DNA of 64,000 nt from Desertivirga arenae. Its GTDB lineage: Bacteria > Bacteroidota > Bacteroidia > Sphingobacteriales > Sphingobacteriaceae. The translations under genes and the position numbers were made by a program. The stretch lies in assembly GCF_017355785.1 (NCBI RefSeq), contig NZ_JAFEWE010000008.1, forward strand, positions 124,001 through 188,000. Direction: 5' to 3'. Shown here piece after piece: positions 14,171 to 24,725 of the stretch (position 1 is its first letter; every line of letters starts with the position of its first letter). The notes beneath the pieces were generated by a model. It did no database searches. It saw only the letters and a program-made list of their open reading frames with translations, and was not told the DNA's origin.

Positions 14171-14743
14171 CTATAATTTTTTTAATGCGATCTTTCTAAG
14201 CGAGTTCTTTTGTTCCTTTTCTATAACTTTTGCCAGCTCTTTTTTATCAGTAAGCTTTTTGATGGCCAGTTTCCTTAGTTGTGTGTTTTTTTCATTTTCA
14301 GCTACATTTCCTAATTCGCGCTGGTCAGTAAGTTTCTCAATGGCTAGCCGTCGCAATTTTCTTTCATTCTCACGTTCAGCTACTTTACCCAATTCCCGCT
14401 GATTAGTAAGTCTTTCAATAGCCAGCTTCCTCAATTGCTTACTCTGTTCATGTTGGGCAACCTTACCCAATTCCCGCTGATTGGTTAGCTTTTCTATGGC
14501 AATTTTCCTTAGTCGCTCATTCGTTTCTGTTCCGGCAATATTCCCTAACTCTCGTTGATTGGTGAGTTTCTGAAGGGCAAGCTTTCGTAACCTTATGTTC
14601 TTCTCATTTTCAGCAATATTACCAAGCTTCCGCTGGTTAATACGAGATTCTGAGCGAGAATAAGAAGTGGCAGGCAGTTCTTGTTTTGATGCGCAAGCTT
14701 GTATACCTGCTGCAAAGGCTAATAAATAGAAAAGATTTTTCAT
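14171..14743 (-). CDS. lipoprotein built of six 26-residue tandem repeats
   Basis: 190 residues. Signal peptide with lipobox GIQAC (Cys17), a short linker to about 34, then six contiguous 26-residue units at 35-60, 61-86, 87-112, 113-138, 139-164 and 165-190. The consensus is LTNQRELGKVA, x, x, E, x3-4, LRKLAIEK. The last unit ends at the last residue. The pattern resembles the short HEAT-like repeats (LTDQ..LA.IA....VR..A) seen in other bacterial envelope proteins, which form helical solenoids. Strongly basic and charged. Ligand unknown. The divergence between units suggests the array is under selection and not a recent slippage product. Confidence 0.8.
   Translation of the reverse strand: MKNLFYLLAFAAGIQACASKQELPATSYSRSESRINQRKLGNIAENEKNIRLRKLALQKLTNQRELGNIAGTETNERLRKIAIEKLTNQRELGKVAQHEQSKQLRKLAIERLTNQRELGKVAERENERKLRRLAIEKLTDQRELGNVAENEKNTQLRKLAIKKLTDKKELAKVIEKEQKNSLRKIALKKL
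14174..14641 (-). repeat. six 78-bp in-frame tandem repeats
   Basis: The DNA behind the six 26-residue units repeats every 78 bases. Units are diverged at the third codon position, while residues such as QRELG and LRKLAI are kept. Confidence 0.8.
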
Positions 14744-16121: not shown

Positions 16122-17711
16122 ATGGATTTTCTAAATAAGACATTAGGTTTTTTTCAAAAAGTACCCTCGGCTCCAACGAATCCTCATGAAGCTGCTGCGC
16201 CTGAAAGGTTTAATATTAAGGACCTGTATTCTGGCGAAGAGAATTCCAGCGAGGAGGAGAAGTCAACGGGATTGGATGAGAAGCTCCGTCAGGCTTATTT
16301 CTGGATAAGCAATACCGCTATTATAAGTCCGTTTTACGATATCGAGTATGACGATGGAGATCCAAAGCAATTTAGTTTTGGGGATAGTAAAGTGCAACTG
16401 AGCCTACCAAAAGGGCAAAGTTATTCCAGTTGTGTTTTAGTGCCACTTTTAAACTTAATTGTGAGAGGCAAATGCCTTATTGTTGGTGGTCCTGGAAGAG
16501 GGAAAACAGCAACCTGTATTTTGATGGGATTACTGGCTGGATACTCAAAAACGGATGTAATGCGGGCAATTCAACACGGCCAGCCGCAAATGACGATTGC
16601 CGATCTTTTAGGTCACCCTTTGCCCTCGGATATGGTTAAGGCTGAAAAAACTTCGGATATCAGGATCGCTTGGAGAAAATGGCTGGGCATGAATGTTAAA
16701 ATTATTGATGAATACAACCGGATTCCAACCAGAACTCAATCAGCCCTTTTAACGGTTCTTTCTGATAACTATGCCGAAATCTTTGATCAGATTTTCGAGT
16801 GCCCCCCGTCCGCCTGGTACTTAACGGCAAATGACGATGCCGGGGGAGGGACTTACCAGGTTATCGAGGCATTAAAAGACAGGATCGATATTGTTATCCG
16901 GGCTTTTCATTTTAATACTCGCTTTATTGATGATTTGCTTAAACGGATCGAATTGAACTATAAGCCAGAGGCAATGATCCCGGAAGAGATCATTTTTTCT
17001 GAAGAGGAGCTGAATCAAATAAATAGAGAAATAAGGGCTGTAAAGATATCTGACGAACTTCGTAAACGAATTGAATTCTTCTGCCGACAGTTTGAGTTTT
17101 TTGAGTCAGCGTCAGACCGGCTAGAATATATGACGAAGGATACTGTAAAACTTTCAGGAATTGATTTTAAAACCCTGTTCCGTCAGGAAACGGGTAAGGA
17201 TCATGTAAAGGATCTTGGCTCTCAAACCTGTAATGGAATTTCTGTTCGTAAAATAACAACACTTTTAATTTTTTCTAAAGCCCTCGCTTATTTCAGAGGG
17301 AACAAAGCGGTGGAACTTGAAGACATCCGACAGATTCTACCTTTTGTGCTGCATGATACTTTTACCCCTCATCTAGAATCTCCTTTCTTTGATCAGCCTG
17401 GCAATGAAAAATATCGCGTAGATAAAGTGGTTTGGTTAAGGAAGATCTTTGATATATCCTGCCAGGAATACCTGAGTATGGACCTCGACCGTAATGATCC
17501 TATGGATATATTTGACGAACAGTTCAGACAAGGCCTGGAAAACGTTAGCCTCAGGGAAGTGGATAAACGACTTCAGGACATTGAGAAACAGCTCTATAAA
17601 TGGTCGCAGGAAAAGAAGTTATACGGGTACCGTGCAGACGACATACTCAAGCTAAAATATTACTATCAGCGTTACTGCAACTATAAACGTTGGCTGCAAT
17701 GGAAAAGGTAA
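16122..17711 (+). CDS. MoxR-like AAA+ ATPase, first gene of seven-gene operon
   Basis: 529 residues from the ATG at 16122; an ATG 156 bases upstream is in frame but gives a low-complexity extension with no family look. Walker A GGPGRGKTAT has K128, Walker B is KIIDEYNR (D196, E197), sensor-1 region WYLTANDD and arginine-bearing EALKDRIDIV. MoxR-type ATPases typically pair with a VWA protein and remodel or insert cofactors into partner proteins (for example RavA/ViaA, CbbQ/CbbO). The C-terminal 200 residues are helical with a coiled coil at the end (DKRLQDIEKQLYKWSQEKK). Its stop overlaps the next start by 13 bases. Confidence 0.88.
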   Translation: MDFLNKTLGFFQKVPSAPTNPHEAAAPERFNIKDLYSGEENSSEEEKSTGLDEKLRQAYFWISNTAIISPFYDIEYDDGDPKQFSFGDSKVQLSLPKGQSYSSCVLVPLLNLIVRGKCLIVGGPGRGKTATCILMGLLAGYSKTDVMRAIQHGQPQMTIADLLGHPLPSDMVKAEKTSDIRIAWRKWLGMNVKIIDEYNRIPTRTQSALLTVLSDNYAEIFDQIFECPPSAWYLTANDDAGGGTYQVIEALKDRIDIVIRAFHFNTRFIDDLLKRIELNYKPEAMIPEEIIFSEEELNQINREIRAVKISDELRKRIEFFCRQFEFFESASDRLEYMTKDTVKLSGIDFKTLFRQETGKDHVKDLGSQTCNGISVRKITTLLIFSKALAYFRGNKAVELEDIRQILPFVLHDTFTPHLESPFFDQPGNEKYRVDKVVWLRKIFDISCQEYLSMDLDRNDPMDIFDEQFRQGLENVSLREVDKRLQDIEKQLYKWSQEKKLYGYRADDILKLKYYYQRYCNYKRWLQWKR

Positions 17712-18664
17712 GGTTTCCTCCCTTAATTGAATATCTCAAAGAATCTTCTGATGAATACAATAAAATGTATTATCAACAGGAATTAAAGTCGGGCGCCATA
17801 AACTCAATGATGCTTTCCAAGTGGATTGTCCAAAATGTTGAGCCGCTCATAATTGCAGTTCATAAAGTAGCGCCAGAGTCACTACCGAAAGTTTTTAAAG
17901 CGTTATATGCTAGTTCTTTATCTCTGTTAGGAAATAATCTTGCTATAACTCATGAAGAGGAGTATAAGCATGGCTGGAACCTCTGCCTTCATATTCCTCA
18001 ACTACTGGTACTACAACCTCAAAGAATTTTAAACGCTATAAACACAGCTCTCGAATCTCTACGGCAGCATCAACCTGAGAAGGTTCTGAATTGGTTAAAC
18101 CTGATGAGGAACCTTGCAACAAAATGCAAAAGCGTGGAGCTTTTCTTAGACTACGGTCGTTTTGCAGCATGGACTTGTGGCATGGCTCACCTCCGTGAAA
18201 AAGCAGCTAAAATTTATTTAGATCTGCCTGGCGAAGTGCTGGAGCTTATTCAGGGGGAAGTGAAAAATGTTCGTATAGCAGACCTGATTGAATTAGGCTG
18301 GAGAAAGGAAAAATATGGTAGTTTTGAAGGAGTTGCAGGTGGGTTTTATGGTTATGGTAAAGCTTTTATTCAACCTCCTTTAGTTGCTCTTGTTGAGAAT
18401 ATTATCGTTGCATCAGATGGCGTTTCCAGTAGTGCTCTTTTCGCTGACGCTTTAGGTACCGTCTTGATAAGTGACATTCCAGTATCAGCGGATTATATAA
18501 AGGAACAGGCGCTTCAATCAAGGGAGAATCAGTTGAGGAAAATACAGAAACATTTTCCAATACCTTTTGATGATGTTACTTCCGTAGCTGCAAATAAGTC
18601 AACTTTAGTTGTGTCGAGAAGCTCATCTCATTATTTATTCCTCTATAGCATTCCTCATGAATAG
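17699..18664 (+). CDS. unknown protein, operon gene 2
   Basis: 321 residues from the ATG at 17699, which overlaps the AAA+ gene; a TTG nine bases upstream is less likely. The first 200 residues look like a helical solenoid (LNAINTALESLRQHQPEKVLNWLNLMRNLATKCKSV in fragments). The rest has a glycine-rich FEGVAGGFYGYGKAF stretch and a hydrophobic segment. No signal peptide or clear enzyme motif. I do not recognise the family. Its position between a MoxR ATPase and its VWA partner suggests an adaptor or target of that pair, which is inference only. Confidence 0.75.
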   Translation: MEKVRFPPLIEYLKESSDEYNKMYYQQELKSGAINSMMLSKWIVQNVEPLIIAVHKVAPESLPKVFKALYASSLSLLGNNLAITHEEEYKHGWNLCLHIPQLLVLQPQRILNAINTALESLRQHQPEKVLNWLNLMRNLATKCKSVELFLDYGRFAAWTCGMAHLREKAAKIYLDLPGEVLELIQGEVKNVRIADLIELGWRKEKYGSFEGVAGGFYGYGKAFIQPPLVALVENIIVASDGVSSSALFADALGTVLISDIPVSADYIKEQALQSRENQLRKIQKHFPIPFDDVTSVAANKSTLVVSRSSSHYLFLYSIPHE

Positions 18665-20414
18665 CGAAACAACAACGGATCAACTGAAGCTAAGCTGGCA
18701 ATCCTACTGGGACAAGGCCCGTTACCTTTGGAGCCCTTTTGTCAAGCTGAGGGAGCCAGTGTGGTGTCTTACGTCAGCAGAGGCAAAAAAAGAGGGGTTG
18801 GCGGGAAGCTTTGCAATGATACGTTTAACCGACCACCGGATTGTAATAGACCTTCAGGAAGTTATGAAACTTGAGGTTGGGGATTATGCACTTCAGGTAC
18901 TTGCCCACGAAATCGGTCATCACATTTATACCCCGGCAAATTTACATGACAACGCCGTCTTGCTATCCCGTATACAGTGGGGTTTGGCCGGGATCGAGAA
19001 TAGAACAGCTTTCGTTGCTAATATATATTCGGATTTTTTGATAAACGATATGCTCCAGCGGTCAAAAGGCCTGGATATGGCAAGTGTTTATATAAAAGTT
19101 AATCGAGGAGTTACTTTTTCAAAGCTTTGGACATTGATAATGAGAACATATGAGTATTTATGGCGACTTAATCGTCGTGAACTTACCATGTCTTCTCATT
19201 TTGAAAGTCAGGAAATTGATGCTGATGCTTCTTTATTAGCCTCTTTAATAAGAAGCTATTCAAAAAACTGGCTTGATGGGGCTGGAAGGTTTACGGCTTT
19301 AGTATACCCTTATATTTTAGAGGATGAAGATTACCGCAAATCAAGGGAGTCATTAATAGTCTACCTGGATGCCGAAACTGCGGGCATGAATGGTGGTATA
19401 ATCGCAGGTATTACAGAGATCGATGATGAAGCCGTCAGTGGTAATGTAGATCCAAGAAGGGAAGCCCTCGGGTTGAAGGATGATGACACGAAAGCAAATG
19501 GTGGCGGTTTAGGAATTTCGCTTCGAGGAGGAACAGGACCCAAACAACGCTACCTTGAACCAAGTATCTATATAGATCTTTTAAGTAAAATAAATCCGTC
19601 ACTTACTGAGCAGGAACTTTTAAATAATTATTACCGTGAGATTGCTCAGCCTCATTTGGTTGAGTTTCCTCTTGAGCAAAGCACGCCTGTATCTTTTACA
19701 TTACCAGAAGGGACAGATAATTGGGATCTTGGAGATTCGATCGACGAGATAGACTGGCTCGAGTCGTCCATCTATTCGCCCGAGATCATTCCCGGCTACA
19801 ATACGCTAAAAAGGGTTTATGGCCCTGATGAGGATAAGTCAGATAAGGAAAGGCCACTTAACGTTTACATTGGAGTAGATTGCTCCGGTTCTATGGGCAA
19901 TCCCAGGTTCACATTTTCCTGGCCGGTACTTGCTGCTTCTATAATAGGGCTCTCAGCGTTAAGGGCTGGAGCAAAGGTAATGGCTTGCCTTTCGGGCGAG
20001 CCGGGTAGTTTTTTAGAAAGTGAAGGGTATATTACTTCTGAAAAGGATGTACTAACTGTCCTTACTTCTTACCTGGGTACAGGTTACGCCTTCGGAATTG
20101 CACGTTTAAATACTCCCTTTGAATTTCCTACCAAAGAAAAATCGCATATAGTTATCGTTACCGACGACGATATATTCAGTATGCTTTCTGCAGAAACTAA
20201 AAGTCCGGAGGATAACTGGACCATCATCGAAAAAGCACTGAGGAACGCAGGAGGACATGGATCGCTTGTGCTGCATTCAAATCCAGAATGGCATCAGGAG
20301 GAGGCTGCCCGTTTAGTAAAAATGGGTTGGAAGATCTATTATGTTACTAATGAAAAGGAATTACTTGATTTTGCAAGAAGCTTTTCAGTAGAAAACTACC
20401 GCACCATCAATTAG
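18657..20414 (+). CDS. zinc-metallopeptidase-like plus VWA protein, operon gene 3
   Basis: 585 residues from the ATG at 18657, overlapping the previous stop by eight bases. The N-terminal half carries VLAHEIGHHIYTP, an HExxH motif (H84, E85, H88), followed by YSDFLIND, which could give a third metal ligand. The C-terminal half holds a VWA domain with MIDAS GVDCSGSMG (D408, S410, S412) and IVTDDD. The fusion of a putative protease with a VWA domain beside a MoxR ATPase resembles the DUF2201-type arrangement, though the HExxH context differs. An acidic glycine-rich linker (about 245-300) joins the halves. Probably cytoplasmic. Whether it cleaves anything is unknown. Confidence 0.82.
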   Translation: MNSETTTDQLKLSWQSYWDKARYLWSPFVKLREPVWCLTSAEAKKEGLAGSFAMIRLTDHRIVIDLQEVMKLEVGDYALQVLAHEIGHHIYTPANLHDNAVLLSRIQWGLAGIENRTAFVANIYSDFLINDMLQRSKGLDMASVYIKVNRGVTFSKLWTLIMRTYEYLWRLNRRELTMSSHFESQEIDADASLLASLIRSYSKNWLDGAGRFTALVYPYILEDEDYRKSRESLIVYLDAETAGMNGGIIAGITEIDDEAVSGNVDPRREALGLKDDDTKANGGGLGISLRGGTGPKQRYLEPSIYIDLLSKINPSLTEQELLNNYYREIAQPHLVEFPLEQSTPVSFTLPEGTDNWDLGDSIDEIDWLESSIYSPEIIPGYNTLKRVYGPDEDKSDKERPLNVYIGVDCSGSMGNPRFTFSWPVLAASIIGLSALRAGAKVMACLSGEPGSFLESEGYITSEKDVLTVLTSYLGTGYAFGIARLNTPFEFPTKEKSHIVIVTDDDIFSMLSAETKSPEDNWTIIEKALRNAGGHGSLVLHSNPEWHQEEAARLVKMGWKIYYVTNEKELLDFARSFSVENYRTIN

Positions 20415-20426
20415 TAAATAAGAGCT

Positions 20427-20999
20427 ATGGTTGAATTGTATACACTCTTATCTCATTTAAAAGGCTGTCCTGAAGTTTTTCTGGAACAACCAGTTGAAAA
20501 TCCTGTAAGTATTAATACTCATGCACTTGTGGCTGACTGTTTCCGTATGGTATCCGGCGATTTTCTTTTGGATAATAATGCTATTCCATCCACCAAAGAG
20601 TTAAATGATCTGGATGGGAATATCATTCCAGCAATTCGAATCGGCTGCTGGCTATTTTCGCATTCAATCTTCGAGGGAAAGCCTGAACTCCTTCCGGCAA
20701 TAAGGCTATTTATGTTTCAAAAATTACCTGTGCTTGCACCCCTGGTAGAGAAAATGCAATGGTTGGAGGATGAAGATCGAACAGAAGAATTTGTGCGTCT
20801 TGCTCTCCGATGTTGCGAGATCCTGACCGACAGGGAAACCCAGATACAGGCCGAGGACAGATTGGATGCACTAGATACCATAAAACGGCAAAAGGTTCTG
20901 AAAGAGTCATCCGGGGCATTTGAACGAATGATGGAAATTCGTAGGAAAATGGCCGAACAGAAAGCCAGGGAAGCAGCAAATGTATATGGAAGGGAATAA
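20427..20999 (+). CDS. unknown helical protein, operon gene 4
   Basis: 190 residues, 12 bases after the VWA gene. Predicted all-helical, no signal peptide. It has a compact N-terminal part (GCPEVFLEQPVE, IGCWLFSHSIF) and a charged C-terminal helix (ERMMEIRRKMAEQKAREAA) that may be a coiled coil. It could be a structural partner of the AAA+/VWA pair; no family recognised. Its 3' end overlaps the next gene by 20 bases, so translation is coupled. Confidence 0.75.
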   Translation: MVELYTLLSHLKGCPEVFLEQPVENPVSINTHALVADCFRMVSGDFLLDNNAIPSTKELNDLDGNIIPAIRIGCWLFSHSIFEGKPELLPAIRLFMFQKLPVLAPLVEKMQWLEDEDRTEEFVRLALRCCEILTDRETQIQAEDRLDALDTIKRQKVLKESSGAFERMMEIRRKMAEQKAREAANVYGRE

Positions 21000-22347
21000 T
21001 AAAGGACCTCAAATAGCTTTGTCGGACAAGGAACGATTTCCATTAATTCAGGATTTAAGTCTGTTAAATGAGTTGAGGCAGGACCATTTAGCTCCTAAAT
21101 TCAATTTTATGAGTGGAGACAGACTAACGGCCAACTCGCTTACAATGGTAGAAAACTATGCCCTGGAAATTCGTGGCAAGACGGAGTTTTGGACAGAGGG
21201 CAAATTTCCAGAATGGCTGGGTGCCTTTTTTCAAGCTTGTCTTATCAATGTGCCCTTCTACCATAACAGGAAAGGAGGATTCTTTAATCAACCCAGCATA
21301 AGCAGGGATGATATTAGAAAGCAGCCCTGGGCTTTTGTGTCGAAAGAGGCGGATTTGAATGAGTTATTGGTTTACCAGACGTCGGGAACCACTGGAGCTC
21401 CACTGGACGTGCTTTTTGATCCTGTTTCCCAGGCCTGCTGGCTTCCTCAAATGCAAAGCATTTTGGACCTTTATGGTATCTCTATTGGCGATAAAGCAAG
21501 AAAAGTGGCTATAGCGCTAATATGTTCCCAGCAATCTACCTTAACTTACGCCTCATTGTCAAGCTACTTAAGAGGAAAGGGCATTTTAAAGATCAATCTA
21601 AATACTGCAGACTGGAAAGATGCCACCCACCGGGTCAAGTATCTCGAAAAATACAACCCTGAAATTCTTACTGGTGACCCATTTGCCTTTATGGATCTTC
21701 TTGAACTCAAACCGCAAATTCAACCTAAAGCTTTAATTTCCTCCGCAATGAAATTAAATGCAGGTGTAAAGGCGGAGCTGGAAAATTATTTTAATGTTCC
21801 AGTGCTCGATGTCTATTCCCTAACGGAATGCCGGAATATCGCTGTTGCGGAAAATGGAAGACATAGGTCTATACGTCCTGATCTATTTCTTGAAATATTC
21901 CATCCTGACCGGGACGAAGTACTGTCAGAAGGAGTAAGGGGCGAACTGGTTGTAAGTGGCGGTAATAATCCTTTCCTTTCATTAGTAAGATATCGAACCG
22001 GCGACTATTGTAGCTTGAGGATGGAGGACGGAATACCTTTCCTAATTGATCTTGAGGCTCGTAAACAGGTGACATTCTATTCCTTGGAAGGAAAATTAAT
22101 TAACCCCGTTGATATCTCGAGAAGAATGACGAAGTTTCCTCTTGCTGGCTTTAGACTTCATCAGGAGGCCAGCCTTGCATTACATTTTGAAGCTTGGACC
22201 AACGAGGAACTAACAGAAACACTCACTTTAGAATTGCTTGCTATCTTTGGCGCCGTTCCTGTAAAGGTTAAAATAGAAAAGGTAGGCGATGGAACTGCTG
22301 CCAAAATAGTTTCCTACTCCAGTTACTTTTCTGAAACTGATTTATAA
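20980..22347 (+). CDS. PaaK-like adenylate-forming enzyme, operon gene 5
   Basis: 455 residues related to phenylacetate-CoA ligase and CapK-type AMP-forming enzymes. The ATP-binding loop is VYQTSGTTGAPLDV (about 128-141), with further motifs DVYSLTECRNIA and VRYRTGDY; the C-terminal subdomain is short. Such enzymes activate a carboxylate as an acyl-AMP, usually passing it to CoA or a carrier. No carrier protein, thioesterase or aromatic catabolism gene is near, so the substrate is open. The ATG at 20980 overlaps the preceding stop; an ATG two codons inside is an alternative start. Placement inside an AAA+/VWA operon is unusual. Confidence 0.82.
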   Translation: MYMEGNNKGPQIALSDKERFPLIQDLSLLNELRQDHLAPKFNFMSGDRLTANSLTMVENYALEIRGKTEFWTEGKFPEWLGAFFQACLINVPFYHNRKGGFFNQPSISRDDIRKQPWAFVSKEADLNELLVYQTSGTTGAPLDVLFDPVSQACWLPQMQSILDLYGISIGDKARKVAIALICSQQSTLTYASLSSYLRGKGILKINLNTADWKDATHRVKYLEKYNPEILTGDPFAFMDLLELKPQIQPKALISSAMKLNAGVKAELENYFNVPVLDVYSLTECRNIAVAENGRHRSIRPDLFLEIFHPDRDEVLSEGVRGELVVSGGNNPFLSLVRYRTGDYCSLRMEDGIPFLIDLEARKQVTFYSLEGKLINPVDISRRMTKFPLAGFRLHQEASLALHFEAWTNEELTETLTLELLAIFGAVPVKVKIEKVGDGTAAKIVSYSSYFSETDL

Positions 22348-22355
22348 TACTTCTG

Positions 22356-22985
22356 ATGGGTCTTTTTGATATAGAAACTATTGCCTTTACTGTCCTCAAT
22401 TATCCCGTGAGTTATGTTGAATTGATCGGCACCCTCTTCGGTTTTATTTCTGTATTCCTGGCCTCAAAGGTTAATATCCTAACATGGCCAACAGGTATTC
22501 TTAACGAGGTATTTTTATTCCTCTTGTTTTTTCAGGTCCAGCTTTATGCCGACATGTTTTTACAGGTTTACTTTCTTACAGTTACCCTATATGGCTGGTA
22601 CAACTGGAAGGTGAAAACCCCGGAGAACACTATCAAAAAATTAAGCTTTGGTTCTCTTGGTAACACAATCCTCCTCATAGTAGTACTATCAATCCCTGCT
22701 GGTTATTTGATTCAAAACCTTCATTTGTACCTGCCACAATACTTTAAAATTCCAGCAGCATTTCCCTACATTGACTCATTGGTTATGACTGCCAGTATTT
22801 TTGCTACCATCTTGTTGTCTCAGAAAAAGTTAGACAATTGGTACATTTGGATATCAGTAGACCTGATTTGTGTGGTGCTTTATTCCGTAAAGGGGATCTA
22901 TTTTTTAGCACTAGAATATTTTGTGTTCCTTGGCATGGCCATTTACGGGTATCATTATTGGAGAAAACAGCTGATCAATGGTTAA
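22356..22985 (+). CDS. pnuC: nicotinamide riboside transporter PnuC
   Basis: 209 residues with about seven hydrophobic segments. Family signatures include NILTWPTGILNEVF, LTVTLYGWYNWK and the C-terminal ALEYFVFLGMAIYGYHYW. PnuC carries nicotinamide riboside across the inner membrane by facilitated diffusion, trapped by phosphorylation. The next gene, nadR, overlaps by eight bases and encodes exactly that kinase, making a self-contained uptake-and-salvage pair. It begins eight bases after the adenylating enzyme gene, so is probably on the same transcript as the AAA+/VWA genes. Confidence 0.93.
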   Translation: MGLFDIETIAFTVLNYPVSYVELIGTLFGFISVFLASKVNILTWPTGILNEVFLFLLFFQVQLYADMFLQVYFLTVTLYGWYNWKVKTPENTIKKLSFGSLGNTILLIVVLSIPAGYLIQNLHLYLPQYFKIPAAFPYIDSLVMTASIFATILLSQKKLDNWYIWISVDLICVVLYSVKGIYFLALEYFVFLGMAIYGYHYWRKQLING

Positions 22986-23994
22986 GGCATTTGTTTTTGG
23001 AAAGTTTCTACCTTTTCATAAAGGACATGAGGCACTCATACGCTTTGCCCTGCTTAAATGCGATTTCTTATCTGTACTGATTTGTTGCAGCGATAGGGAA
23101 GGGGTGGATGGAGAAACAAGGAAAAGCTGGATAGCGAACAGTCTCGGTAGTGCGGATAATTTAAGCATACAGATCTTCAATTACCTGGAATCTGAATTAC
23201 CTAATACTTCAGAATCCTCACAGGAGGTTTCCAAGCTGTGGTCGGCCCGTTTCAAAGAAATGTTCCCTGATTATAACCTAGTAGTTACTTCAGAACCCTA
23301 TGGCGATTACGTAGCTTCCTTTATGAATATCATACATATTCCTTTCGACCGGCAAAGAGAAATCGTACCTGTTTCTGCAACTGCAATAAGACAAGACCTT
23401 TTATCTAATTGGAAATATCTTCCGAAATCCTCCAGAACTTATTTAGCTTTTAAGGTGGTTATCCTTGGAACAGAGTCTACAGGAAAGTCTACTCTCGCCG
23501 CTCAACTTGCAGACCACTATCAGTGTACACTGGTTACGGAAGCTGGCCGGGATTTAATTAAGGATTCCAAAGATTTTTCTTACGATGATCTTATCTCCGT
23601 TGCTCATGAGCATTCAACCAGAATAGTAAATGCAACAGGTGGTGACCATCCGCTTATCATAATTGACACCGATATTCATATCACCAGATCCTATTCCAGA
23701 TTTGTGTTCAATAAAGATCTGGAAGTGGAAGAGTCTCTTTTGAATCATAACAAGGCAGACCTTTATTTGTATCTCAAAAACGATGTGCCATTCGTTCAGG
23801 ATGGAGGAAGGCTAAGTGAAGAAGACCGCAATCGATTGGATACTTTTCACAGAGAGATACTACAGCAAGCCGACGTTAAATTGATAGAAATTGAAGGCCA
23901 TTGGTGTCAAAGATTTGAAAAGGCCGCACAGGCTATTGATCGTCTTTTAAATAATAACAGGCTTACTCTGGACTTAAAAAAAGCGCCCGTATAA
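22978..23994 (+). CDS. nadR: NadR-like NMN adenylyltransferase / ribosylnicotinamide kinase
   Basis: 338 residues. The N-terminal nucleotidyltransferase has GKFLPFHKGHEAL (HxGH) and VSATAIRQDL (ISATxxR type). The C-terminal kinase domain has a P-loop GTESTGKSTL (about 163) followed by VTEAGRD. It lacks the N-terminal helix-turn-helix of enterobacterial NadR, so it is an enzyme only: it phosphorylates nicotinamide riboside to NMN, then forms NAD. The start overlaps pnuC by eight bases, and a GC-rich hairpin ends the operon right after its stop codon. Confidence 0.93.
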   Translation: MVKAFVFGKFLPFHKGHEALIRFALLKCDFLSVLICCSDREGVDGETRKSWIANSLGSADNLSIQIFNYLESELPNTSESSQEVSKLWSARFKEMFPDYNLVVTSEPYGDYVASFMNIIHIPFDRQREIVPVSATAIRQDLLSNWKYLPKSSRTYLAFKVVILGTESTGKSTLAAQLADHYQCTLVTEAGRDLIKDSKDFSYDDLISVAHEHSTRIVNATGGDHPLIIIDTDIHITRSYSRFVFNKDLEVEESLLNHNKADLYLYLKNDVPFVQDGGRLSEEDRNRLDTFHREILQQADVKLIEIEGHWCQRFEKAAQAIDRLLNNNRLTLDLKKAPV

Positions 23995-24005
23995 ATCTAA
24001 CGGGC
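23985..24005 (+). terminator. operon terminator hairpin
   Basis: GCCCGT (23985-23990) and ACGGGC (24000-24005) flank a nine-base loop; ATTATTT follows. The left arm includes the last nadR codons. Confidence 0.6.
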
Positions 24006-24058: not shown

Positions 24059-24373
24059 TTAATGCTCTTTCAACCGACCAACTACAGAATCCAGACTTCC
24101 TTTTAACCGGTCAACTGCTCCTTTTATTGCAAGCTCTGGTGTATCTGCGAAATTGGTTATAACTACAGGATTCAAGCTTTCCAATTTTGCTTCAATCACG
24201 CATTTTATTCCATCCTTGCCCTCTTTTGGTCCATTCTCGTCACTAACGTGAACATCAATACGGGTAATGTAAGTGCTAAAGCGACTAAGCGTTTCTTTTA
24301 TAAATTCTGAGAAATACGCTATATGTCTTTCACCTCCCTGAATGTGATGATCTGTGTTGATGCTAACTAACAT
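24059..24373 (-). CDS. HPF/RaiA-like ribosome-associated protein
   Basis: 104 residues from the ATG at 24373; a longer frame to 24403 adds a tail without family similarity. The pattern IDVHVSDENGPKEGKDGIKCVIEAKLE and AIKGAVDRLKGSLD matches the short HPF/RaiA (sigma-54 modulation) fold, beta-alpha-beta-beta-beta-alpha. These proteins bind the small ribosomal subunit and help ribosome hibernation under stress. The sequence is diverged and also resembles small stand-alone HPF-like proteins of unclear role. It is convergent with nadR and divergent from the AraC gene at 24726. Confidence 0.75.
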   Translation of the reverse strand: MLVSINTDHHIQGGERHIAYFSEFIKETLSRFSTYITRIDVHVSDENGPKEGKDGIKCVIEAKLESLNPVVITNFADTPELAIKGAVDRLKGSLDSVVGRLKEH

Positions 24374-24725
24374 AGTTTTAAGTTTTAATGAATAAAAAGG
24401 CAATATAAGAGAGTAAACTTTTCTATGTACAATTAAATTTATTTTATAATGATTTCATATTACACTTAATGGTAACTTTTCTTAACCCTCCGGTATATGG
24501 TGGTAGTGCAGAAGTAATATTTAAATTTTAATTGACATGGAAATCCGTATGAAATAAACTTTCGTAAGTTGACAGAAAAATTTAGCTATCTAAAATTAAG
24601 TAAGTTGCGATCATTTTTCACATTCTTCTTAATCATATGTTCAAACATCAAATTATTCTTTATAATTTCAACCCGTCGTAGAAAAATTGCTGATCTATTA
24701 GTCGTTCCTAACCAATCCAATTTTA
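24374..24725. other. 352-bp divergent intergenic region
   Basis: AT-rich spacer between divergent HPF-like and AraC-type genes. It should hold both promoters, but I find no clear TAnnTTTG element, repeat or hairpin in it. Confidence 0.4.

What the first reader, a model, noticed from the sequence alone, without database searches (positions are those of the whole stretch)
16122..24005. Seven-gene operon joining a MoxR-type AAA+/VWA module to an adenylating enzyme and NAD salvage
AAA+ ATPase, unknown protein, HExxH-VWA protein, unknown helical protein, PaaK-like AMP-forming enzyme, PnuC and NadR are on one strand with overlaps of 8-20 bases or gaps of 8-12, and one hairpin terminator after nadR. 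MoxR/VWA pairs are known to remodel or activate partner proteins. I know of no described system that couples such a pair to an adenylate-forming enzyme and a nicotinamide riboside uptake/kinase pair. Possible roles are maturation of an NAD-dependent or modified protein, or a stress or defence system that consumes and then restores NAD. These roles are inference; the gene order and overlaps are seen directly.
Basis: partly seen in the sequence, partly recalled or inferred. Interest (0 to 1): 0.78.

Follow-up and report, generated by a model that had tools for sequence, protein, structure and literature searches.

The report
Seven-gene remodelling machine with private NAD supply
Seven neighbouring bacterial genes, encoding a likely ATP-driven protein-remodelling machine, an adenylating enzyme and a two-step route from imported nicotinamide riboside to NAD, are kept together in two distant bacterial phyla, so they very probably do one joint job that I found no description of.

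Summary
All seven genes lie as described at 16122-23994. Searches with the HExxH-VWA protein gave, with the window, 36 distinct loci in Bacteroidota and Riflebacteria. In 32 of 36 all seven genes are contiguous; three are cut by contig ends, and one has six with the PaaK-like gene elsewhere in its genome. The pnuC-nadR pair sits downstream in some lineages and upstream in others. The AAA+ and HExxH-VWA genes occur in the same 6 of 395 Bacteroidota genomes, three of which have them on different contigs. Among 150 Flavobacterium genomes, full-length bifunctional NadR was found only in the six carriers. The NadR tree rejects a single origin for module NadRs (p-AU 1.1e-5): the window's pair is 61-63% identical to a free-standing pair elsewhere but about 27-35% to most other modules' pairs, so it was swapped in or recruited independently. 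C had no match among phage, plasmid or viral contigs, and flanks show little sign of defence islands. Most likely: an AAA+/VWA machine remodels a client in a process needing an adenylation step and nicotinamide nucleotides. Client and chemistry are unknown; the mechanism is inference.

The parts
16122..17711 (+). Gene A, 529 aa, MoxR-type AAA+ ATPase (Walker A GGPGRGKT, IIDEYNR, TAND)
   Evidence: Pfam AAA_3 above cut-off; motifs invariant in an alignment of 8, relatives 68-92% identical; motif names recalled
17699..18664 (+). Gene B, 321 aa, helical region (7-199) plus C-terminal region of beta strands with one helix (208-317); adaptor role inferred
   Evidence: AF2 mean pLDDT 91.7; no PDB fold match at E<=0.001; no Pfam family consistently; present in all 32 complete loci
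18657..20414 (+). Gene C, 585 aa, N-terminal HExxHH motif (residues 84-89) and C-terminal VWA-like domain with DxSxS (408-412), T470/T475 and D503
   Evidence: Invariant in 28 sequences; low-confidence model (pLDDT 61.5) whose best PDB hits are mostly VWA domains, none at E<=0.001; no Pfam match
20427..20999 (+). Gene D, 190 aa, with conserved C-terminal tail AREAANxYGR[ED] in most; structure not predicted
   Evidence: Tail ends Y-[GS]-R-[ED] in 36 of 36 loci (34 YGRE, 1 YGRD, 1 YSRE); one frame with C in L030
20980..22347 (+). Gene E, 455 aa, PaaK-like adenylate-forming enzyme
   Evidence: Pfam AMP-binding above cut-off; four PDB phenylacetate-CoA ligase sequences, E 4.6e-18 to 8.7e-9; TSGxTG, TEC and YRTGD invariant in 9
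22356..22985 (+). Gene F, 209 aa, PnuC-type nicotinamide riboside transporter
   Evidence: TIGR01528 94.6 bits, cut-off 42.45; 4QTN match, E 1e-5
22978..23994 (+). Gene G, 338 aa, bifunctional NadR (NMN adenylyltransferase + ribosylnicotinamide kinase)
   Evidence: Match over residues 5-329 to 1LW7 NadR, E 1.6e-28; HxGH and STGK residues invariant in 9
23985..24005 (+). Hairpin GCCCGT-9-ACGGGC with weak T tail, possible terminator
   Evidence: Read in sequence; not listed by the scan

Best explanation
The seven genes form one functional module. Its core is an ATP-driven remodelling machine: A is a MoxR-type AAA+ ring and C is its VWA partner, carrying its own HExxH domain. B and D act as adaptors. 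D probably docks its conserved acidic C-terminal tail on the metal site (MIDAS) of C, as an acidic residue of the client does in CbbQO. E activates a carboxyl group with ATP. F imports nicotinamide riboside and G turns it into NMN and NAD in two steps, giving the process its own nicotinamide-nucleotide supply. The most likely job is maturation, repair or modification of a client enzyme encoded elsewhere, probably a redox enzyme, in a step that consumes NAD, NMN or a derivative. SHOWN: gene set, conservation, rearranged order, co-occurrence without linkage, more than one origin of the module NadR, catalytic motifs. INFERRED: complex formation, tail docking, enzyme activities, E's substrate, which nicotinamide nucleotide is used, the client.
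For: All seven contiguous in 32 of 36 loci, in three complete orders. A and C in the same 6 of 395 Bacteroidota genomes, three of them with A, C, E and pnuC-nadR on different contigs. Full-length NadR in all 6 C-bearing genomes and in 7 of the other 389; in Flavobacterium 6 of 6 against 0 of 144. Module NadRs are not one clade, p-AU 1.1e-5, while an unrooted A+E+C tree of 7 loci splits the two Riflebacteria from the five Bacteroidota. The window's F and G are 63% and 61% identical to a free pair in G182, a genome with no A or C match. The module pnuC is the only pnuC found in five Riflebacteria genomes. D's tail ends Y-[GS]-R-[ED] in 36 of 36, also where E does not follow D (L062, L063). C and D are one frame in L030. 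In CbbQO the MIDAS binds an acidic client residue and a C-terminal 11-mer of the client stimulates the ATPase (PMC4660213, passages); NorQ with its VWA partner NorD serves metal insertion (PMC13036017, passages). Flavoenzyme genes touch the module in divergent members: flavin reductase between G and E in L063, ETF alpha and FAD oxidase before E in L137, flavin amine oxidoreductase beside C in L045.
Against: No client or product is identified. The flavoenzymes differ from each other and may be chance neighbours. C's model is poor (pLDDT 61.5), so VWA and HExxH readings rest largely on motifs and secondary structure. Nothing shows that A and C bind, that D's tail binds C, or that E is active. 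The L030 C-D frame comes from one MAG and may be an assembly error. E in the three dispersed genomes rests on 247-271 bits in a superfamily with many relatives. B and D were not sought genome-wide there. The dispersed genomes are draft assemblies. The PnuC tree does not resolve the origin question, and the NadR tree flags four rows for odd letter make-up, L186 among them. An ADP-ribosylglycohydrolase gene right after nadR in L003 would also fit an NAD-consuming or ADP-ribosylation system.
Confidence: 0.5

Rival explanations
1. A stress or anti-phage system that consumes NAD (or makes ADP-ribosyl products) when triggered through the AAA+/VWA switch, and uses PnuC-NadR to refill the pool afterwards.
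For: Patchy presence (6 of 150 Flavobacterium; 6 of 395 Bacteroidota) and differing flanks: in the clustering no flanking family recurs in more than 6 of 30 loci. MoxR-vWA couples occur in predicted conflict systems (PMC7159879, passages and two sections). An ADP-ribosylglycohydrolase gene starts 3 bp after nadR in L003. The window NadR is 39% identical to the NadR of a 735-kb uncultured phage record that also has a PnuC next to it.
Against: No NADase or toxin domain recognised among the seven. No PADLOC hit to A-F at E<=1 and only weak hits to G (best 0.00069). Of 82 flanking proteins from 12 loci, five PADLOC models hit at E<=1e-10, each in one protein; no control set was scanned. No match in plasmids, phages or IMG/VR for C, none in plasmids or phages for A. 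In three genomes A, C, E and pnuC-nadR are apart, unusual for defence operons (my knowledge). The L003 glycohydrolase matches only itself in the 43 stretches tested, some of them duplicates.
Confidence: 0.2
2. The AAA+/VWA machine and adenylating enzyme serve NAD salvage itself, for example by activating or controlling the PnuC transporter or NadR.
For: PnuC-NadR is the constant partner.
Against: The window's pair is only about 27-35% identical to most other module pairs and nearest to a free pair, which argues against fine protein-protein fit between the core and its PnuC or NadR. Seven genomes have full-length NadR without C, and in the 20-kb stretches round those seven only F or G models match.
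Confidence: 0.12
3. Accidental or selfish clustering: pnuC-nadR is ordinary salvage that hitchhikes with an unrelated AAA+/VWA operon.
For: pnuC is near-universal in Flavobacterium (148 of 150), so a nearby copy could be chance; by my count 29 of the 144 non-carriers also list two or three pnuC.
Against: All six Flavobacterium carriers have a second pnuC besides the module's. Full-length NadR was found only in carriers there. The order is rearranged with the set kept, the NadR has at least two origins, and co-occurrence persists without linkage.
Confidence: 0.04

Closest known systems
CbbQO rubisco activase and NorQD iron insertase (MoxR AAA+/VWA pairs)
   Same: MoxR-type AAA+ with a protein bearing a C-terminal VWA domain and complete MIDAS; client recognition by an acidic residue and a C-terminal tail is reported for CbbQO (passages)
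   Different: C carries an HExxHH motif; two extra conserved proteins B and D, an adenylating enzyme and an NAD supply; no known client beside it
MoxR-vWA ternary conflict systems (Kaur et al. 2020, PMC7159879)
   Same: AAA+ and vWA core with further conserved components; Bacteroidota among the hosts of one of them
   Different: No VMAP, iSTAND, FtsH or beta-propeller component found; the main text has no word beginning 'adenylat', and the NAD passages I saw concern TIR, Nudix and Macro effector domains
RavA-ViaA (E. coli)
   Same: AAA+/VWA pair linked to respiratory redox enzymes (only the starts of abstracts seen)
   Different: Two-gene system (recalled), no adenylating enzyme or NAD pathway in it
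PnuC-NadR nicotinamide riboside salvage
   Same: Same two proteins and, by homology, the same two-step chemistry
   Different: Here tied to a non-salvage core, often as a second pnuC; of 29 non-module Flavobacterium pnuC loci held, 19 have a kinase-only NadR-like match next to pnuC and none a full-length one
DVU_1553-family / PaaK adenylating enzymes
   Same: E is related: NF045666 71.7 bits, PaaK structures E down to 4.6e-18
   Different: Far below the NF045666 cut-off of 300; substrate and CoA use unknown

Membership tests
MoxR AAA+ family | AAA_3 ATPase domain with Walker A, Walker B, sensor | tested here: met
   PF07726 29.5 bits over 27; invariant motifs; the helix-2 insert that defines the MoxR clade was not examined
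MoxR AAA+/VWA pair | Partner VWA protein with MIDAS (DxSxS-T-D) | tested here: met
   D408-S410-S412, T470/T475, D503 invariant in 28; VWA-like best fold hits but none at E<=0.001 and model weak; no Pfam VWA match
MoxR AAA+/VWA pair | Physical complex and ATP-driven remodelling | not testable with these tools
   needs purified proteins
MoxR-vWA ternary conflict systems | Third component VMAP, iSTAND, FtsH or beta-propeller | tested here: not met
   No such Pfam or PADLOC match in the seven; B has no significant fold match, best a WD40 domain at E 0.11
NadR | NMN adenylyltransferase plus ribosylnicotinamide kinase domains | tested here: met
   Matches over both domains to 1LW7 and three other NadR-type structures; motifs; activity not tested
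NadR (NCBIfam TIGR01526 equivalog) | Score over curated cut-off 341.15 | tested here: not met
   156.1 bits; homologous, not filed as this equivalog
PnuC | TIGR01528 score over 42.45 | tested here: met
   94.6 bits; substrate not tested
DVU_1553 family AMP-dependent ligase (NF045666) | Score over 300 | tested here: not met
   71.7 bits
ANL adenylate-forming superfamily | AMP-binding domain with conserved ATP-binding motifs | tested here: met
   PF00501 32.4 over 29.9; motifs (motif roles recalled)
Known anti-phage systems in PADLOC | Hit of core components to a system model | tested here: not met
   No hit for A-F at E<=1; G only weak hits, best 0.00069

The most novel reading that the evidence does not exclude
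A new kind of protein-modification or cofactor-installation system. E adenylates a carboxylate (either D's conserved C-terminal Y-G-R-E/D end or a nicotinamide-nucleotide derivative made from NadR products), and the A-C AAA+/VWA/HExxH machine with B presents, installs or cleaves the activated group on a client.
Probability: 0.12. Interest if true: 0.92.

Novelty: new variant of a known kind. Interest (0 to 1): 0.64.

Why it matters
AAA+/VWA machines mature important metallo- and redox enzymes, yet many have no known client. A module in which such a machine is tied, in two phyla and with salvage pairs of more than one origin, to adenylation and to its own NAD supply gives a concrete handle: the nucleotide chemistry narrows the search for the client. 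It also points to a use of nicotinamide riboside salvage that is not general NAD homeostasis.

Tried and rejected
Terminator and promoter scan: nothing above shuffles. Pfam for B, C and D at E up to 10: nothing consistent. Fold search of B: no match at E<=0.001. Fold of C with 28 sequences: low confidence, useful only for the VWA half and the secondary structure. An attempt to align C and D rows onto the L030 fusion appeared to put the D rows in the wrong place, so that alignment was not folded; D was not folded at all. PnuC tree: too little resolution to judge one origin. Defence-island test on 82 of the 88 flanking genes drawn from 12 loci (drawn; six long ones dropped), without a control set: little found. 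Pfam on the same 82: no family in more than 3 of them. A chance hit of C to HcgB at E 0.67 was ignored. MoxR ternary conflict systems rejected as a home because no third component was found.
Full report
What was checked. The window is part of a 6.19-Mb genome (G000:C42:124001-188000). I call them A (AAA+), B (321 aa), C (HExxH-VWA), D (190 aa), E (PaaK-like), F (pnuC), G (nadR). Pfam supports A, E, F and G above curated cut-offs and finds nothing consistent for B, C and D.

Is the link real? A scan of genome contigs (one genome for each of 84,980 species) with peptides of C, which reaches close relatives only, gave 55 candidate stretches and 30 confirmed loci: 23 Flavobacterium, four other Bacteroidota (L003, L004, L005, L030) and three Riflebacteria (L026, L027, L031). 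Genome searches added more. A recount by profile search finds all seven genes contiguous in 32 of 36 (tblastn). L004, L027 and L065 are cut by contig ends; in L065 E changes reading frame. L062 has six, and a match to E is on another contig of its genome. Three complete orders occur: A-B-C-D-E-F-G in five (window, L003, L026, L031, L064); F-G-A-B-C-D-E in 26 (L005-L025, L028-L030, L032, L067); F-G-E-A-B-C-D in L063, with a flavin reductase gene between G and E. L062 shows A-B-C, a histidine kinase gene on the other strand, then D-F-G. In a clustering of the 30 genome-contig loci no other protein family is shared by more than six. So the unit is these seven genes.

Co-occurrence. C is in 6 of 395 Bacteroidota genomes, 6 of 150 Flavobacterium and 7 of 39 Riflebacteria (one, G566, partial). 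A is in exactly the same six of the 395 (E<=1e-20). In three of these (G013, G034, G131, one genus) matches to A, C, E and the pnuC-nadR pair lie on different contigs, and the stretches read round each show no other module gene; these are draft assemblies, and B and D were not sought genome-wide. NadR matches running from model position 1-3 to 321 or later of 331 are in 13 of 395: all six carriers of C and 7 of the other 389. In the 150 Flavobacterium they are in six, precisely the six carriers; elsewhere the strong matches cover only the kinase half, besides weak N-terminal ones. Fisher p-values are 2e-13 (A and C), 3e-10 and 7e-11 (NadR and C). They ignore relatedness (the six of 395 fall in three genera), and only 5 or up to 14 candidates a genome were scored, so take them as descriptive.

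More than one origin of the pair. The window genome has a second pnuC, 36% identical, beside a kinase-only gene. The six carrier Flavobacterium genomes likewise list two pnuC each; by my count so do, with two or three, 29 of the 144 non-carriers. In five Riflebacteria genomes the module copy is the only one found. A tree of 23 full-length NadRs rejects one clade for the 13 module NadRs (lnL difference 199, p-AU 1.1e-5): the window and L003 NadRs join a free-standing pair in G182 with support 100/100, apart from the Flavobacterium, Cytophagales and main Riflebacteria module NadRs (100/100) and from L062/L063. Four rows, L186 of G182 among them, have an odd letter make-up, a caution. By identity the window F and G are 63% and 61% like the G182 pair, but 33-35% and 27% like those of L016 and L026, and 34% and 31% like those of L062. 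An unrooted A+E+C tree of seven loci splits the two Riflebacteria from the five Bacteroidota, the window and L003 being sisters. The PnuC tree alone is unresolved. I read this as at least two recruitments, or one replacement, of the same two-step route. It argues that the chemistry (nicotinamide riboside to NMN to NAD), not one particular protein, is what the core needs.

Parts and mechanism. A has intact AAA+ motifs and is the most conserved part (68-92% to the window). C has HEIGHH at 84-89 and a complete MIDAS set of residues; its model is weak, but the C-terminal half alternates strands and helices and its best structural hits are mostly VWA domains, none at E<=0.001. B models well (pLDDT 91.7) as a helical region followed by beta strands and matches no solved fold at E<=0.001. 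D ends in Y-[GS]-R-[ED] in 36 of 36 loci, also in L062 and L063, where D is otherwise 28-31% identical and E does not follow it, so overlap with E's start does not explain the tail. In L030 C and D are one 782-aa frame, a hint of contact, or an assembly error. In CbbQO the MIDAS engages an acidic client residue and a C-terminal 11-mer of the client stimulates the ATPase (PMC4660213, passages); for NorQD a twisting of the VWA partner is proposed to let metal in (PMC13036017, passages). By analogy I infer that D's acidic tail docks at C's MIDAS. E keeps adenylation motifs and is nearest to PaaK structures; its substrate is unknown. G aligns over both domains with solved NadRs.

What is it for? 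I favour maturation, repair or modification of a client enzyme encoded elsewhere, with a nicotinamide nucleotide as substrate or donor. Reasons: known MoxR/VWA pairs do this; the genes can be dispersed; neither the module proteins nor the sampled flanks look like defence (the latter without a control set). Three divergent members touch different flavoenzyme genes, a lead only. Against this, L003 has an ADP-ribosylglycohydrolase gene 3 bp after nadR, which would suit an NAD-consuming system, though the other stretches tested (43 in all, some duplicates) have no match to it; and the patchy spread would suit defence. Hence 0.5 for the favoured account as a whole; my confidence that the seven genes act together is about 0.9, and in the specific client idea about 0.35.

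Known or new? No paper in the held library has MoxR, PnuC and NadR together or MoxR, von Willebrand and NadR. The other searches gave no description of this gene set in what I saw: listings, starts of abstracts, and the passages or sections cited. The conflict-system survey PMC7159879 (abstract, passages and two sections) sets apart four MoxR-vWA systems by a third component or fused domain that I do not find here. A passage search of PMC9503650 on NAD and ADP-ribose systems of viruses found no MoxR or PnuC. I therefore file this as a new variant of AAA+/VWA remodelling systems; most subscription papers and bioRxiv preprints are not in the library.

Noticed in passing
L003:15321-16271: ADP-ribosylglycohydrolase gene (PF03747) starting 3 bp after nadR in Pararcticibacter; no match to it in the other 42 stretches tested (some duplicates).
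   Followed up: partly
L030:9965-12313: C and D form one 782-aa open frame in a Sporocytophaga MAG: natural fusion or lost stop.
   Followed up: partly
L196:4322-5978: A 735-kb uncultured phage record carries pnuC next to a NadR 39% identical to the window's, closer than the module NadRs of L016 and L026 (27%).
   Followed up: partly
L045:7896-11176: In one of the three dispersed genomes a C homologue lies next to a flavin amine oxidoreductase gene (PF01593); L047 has a neighbour of the same length, not scanned.
   Followed up: partly
L137:6715-10674: In G555 the E gene lies about 16 bp after an FAD-oxidase gene that follows ETF alpha, apart from the rest of the module.
   Followed up: partly
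L062:7082-9592: A PAS histidine kinase gene on the opposite strand sits between C and D of a divergent Riflebacteria module.
   Followed up: no
L065:2364-3664: The E gene changes reading frame in a short contig: frameshift or sequencing error.
   Followed up: no
14171-14743: 190-aa minus-strand protein made of repeated copies of a charged unit around NQRELGN...LRKLAI; no Pfam family above its cut-off.
   Followed up: no
24059-24403: Minus-strand gene for an S30EA/HPF-like protein (PF02482, 30 bits) just after the operon.
   Followed up: no
Flavobacterium genomes: The kinase-only NadR-like match often lies in an open frame of about 720-780 aa, so it seems fused to a large unassigned region.
   Followed up: no
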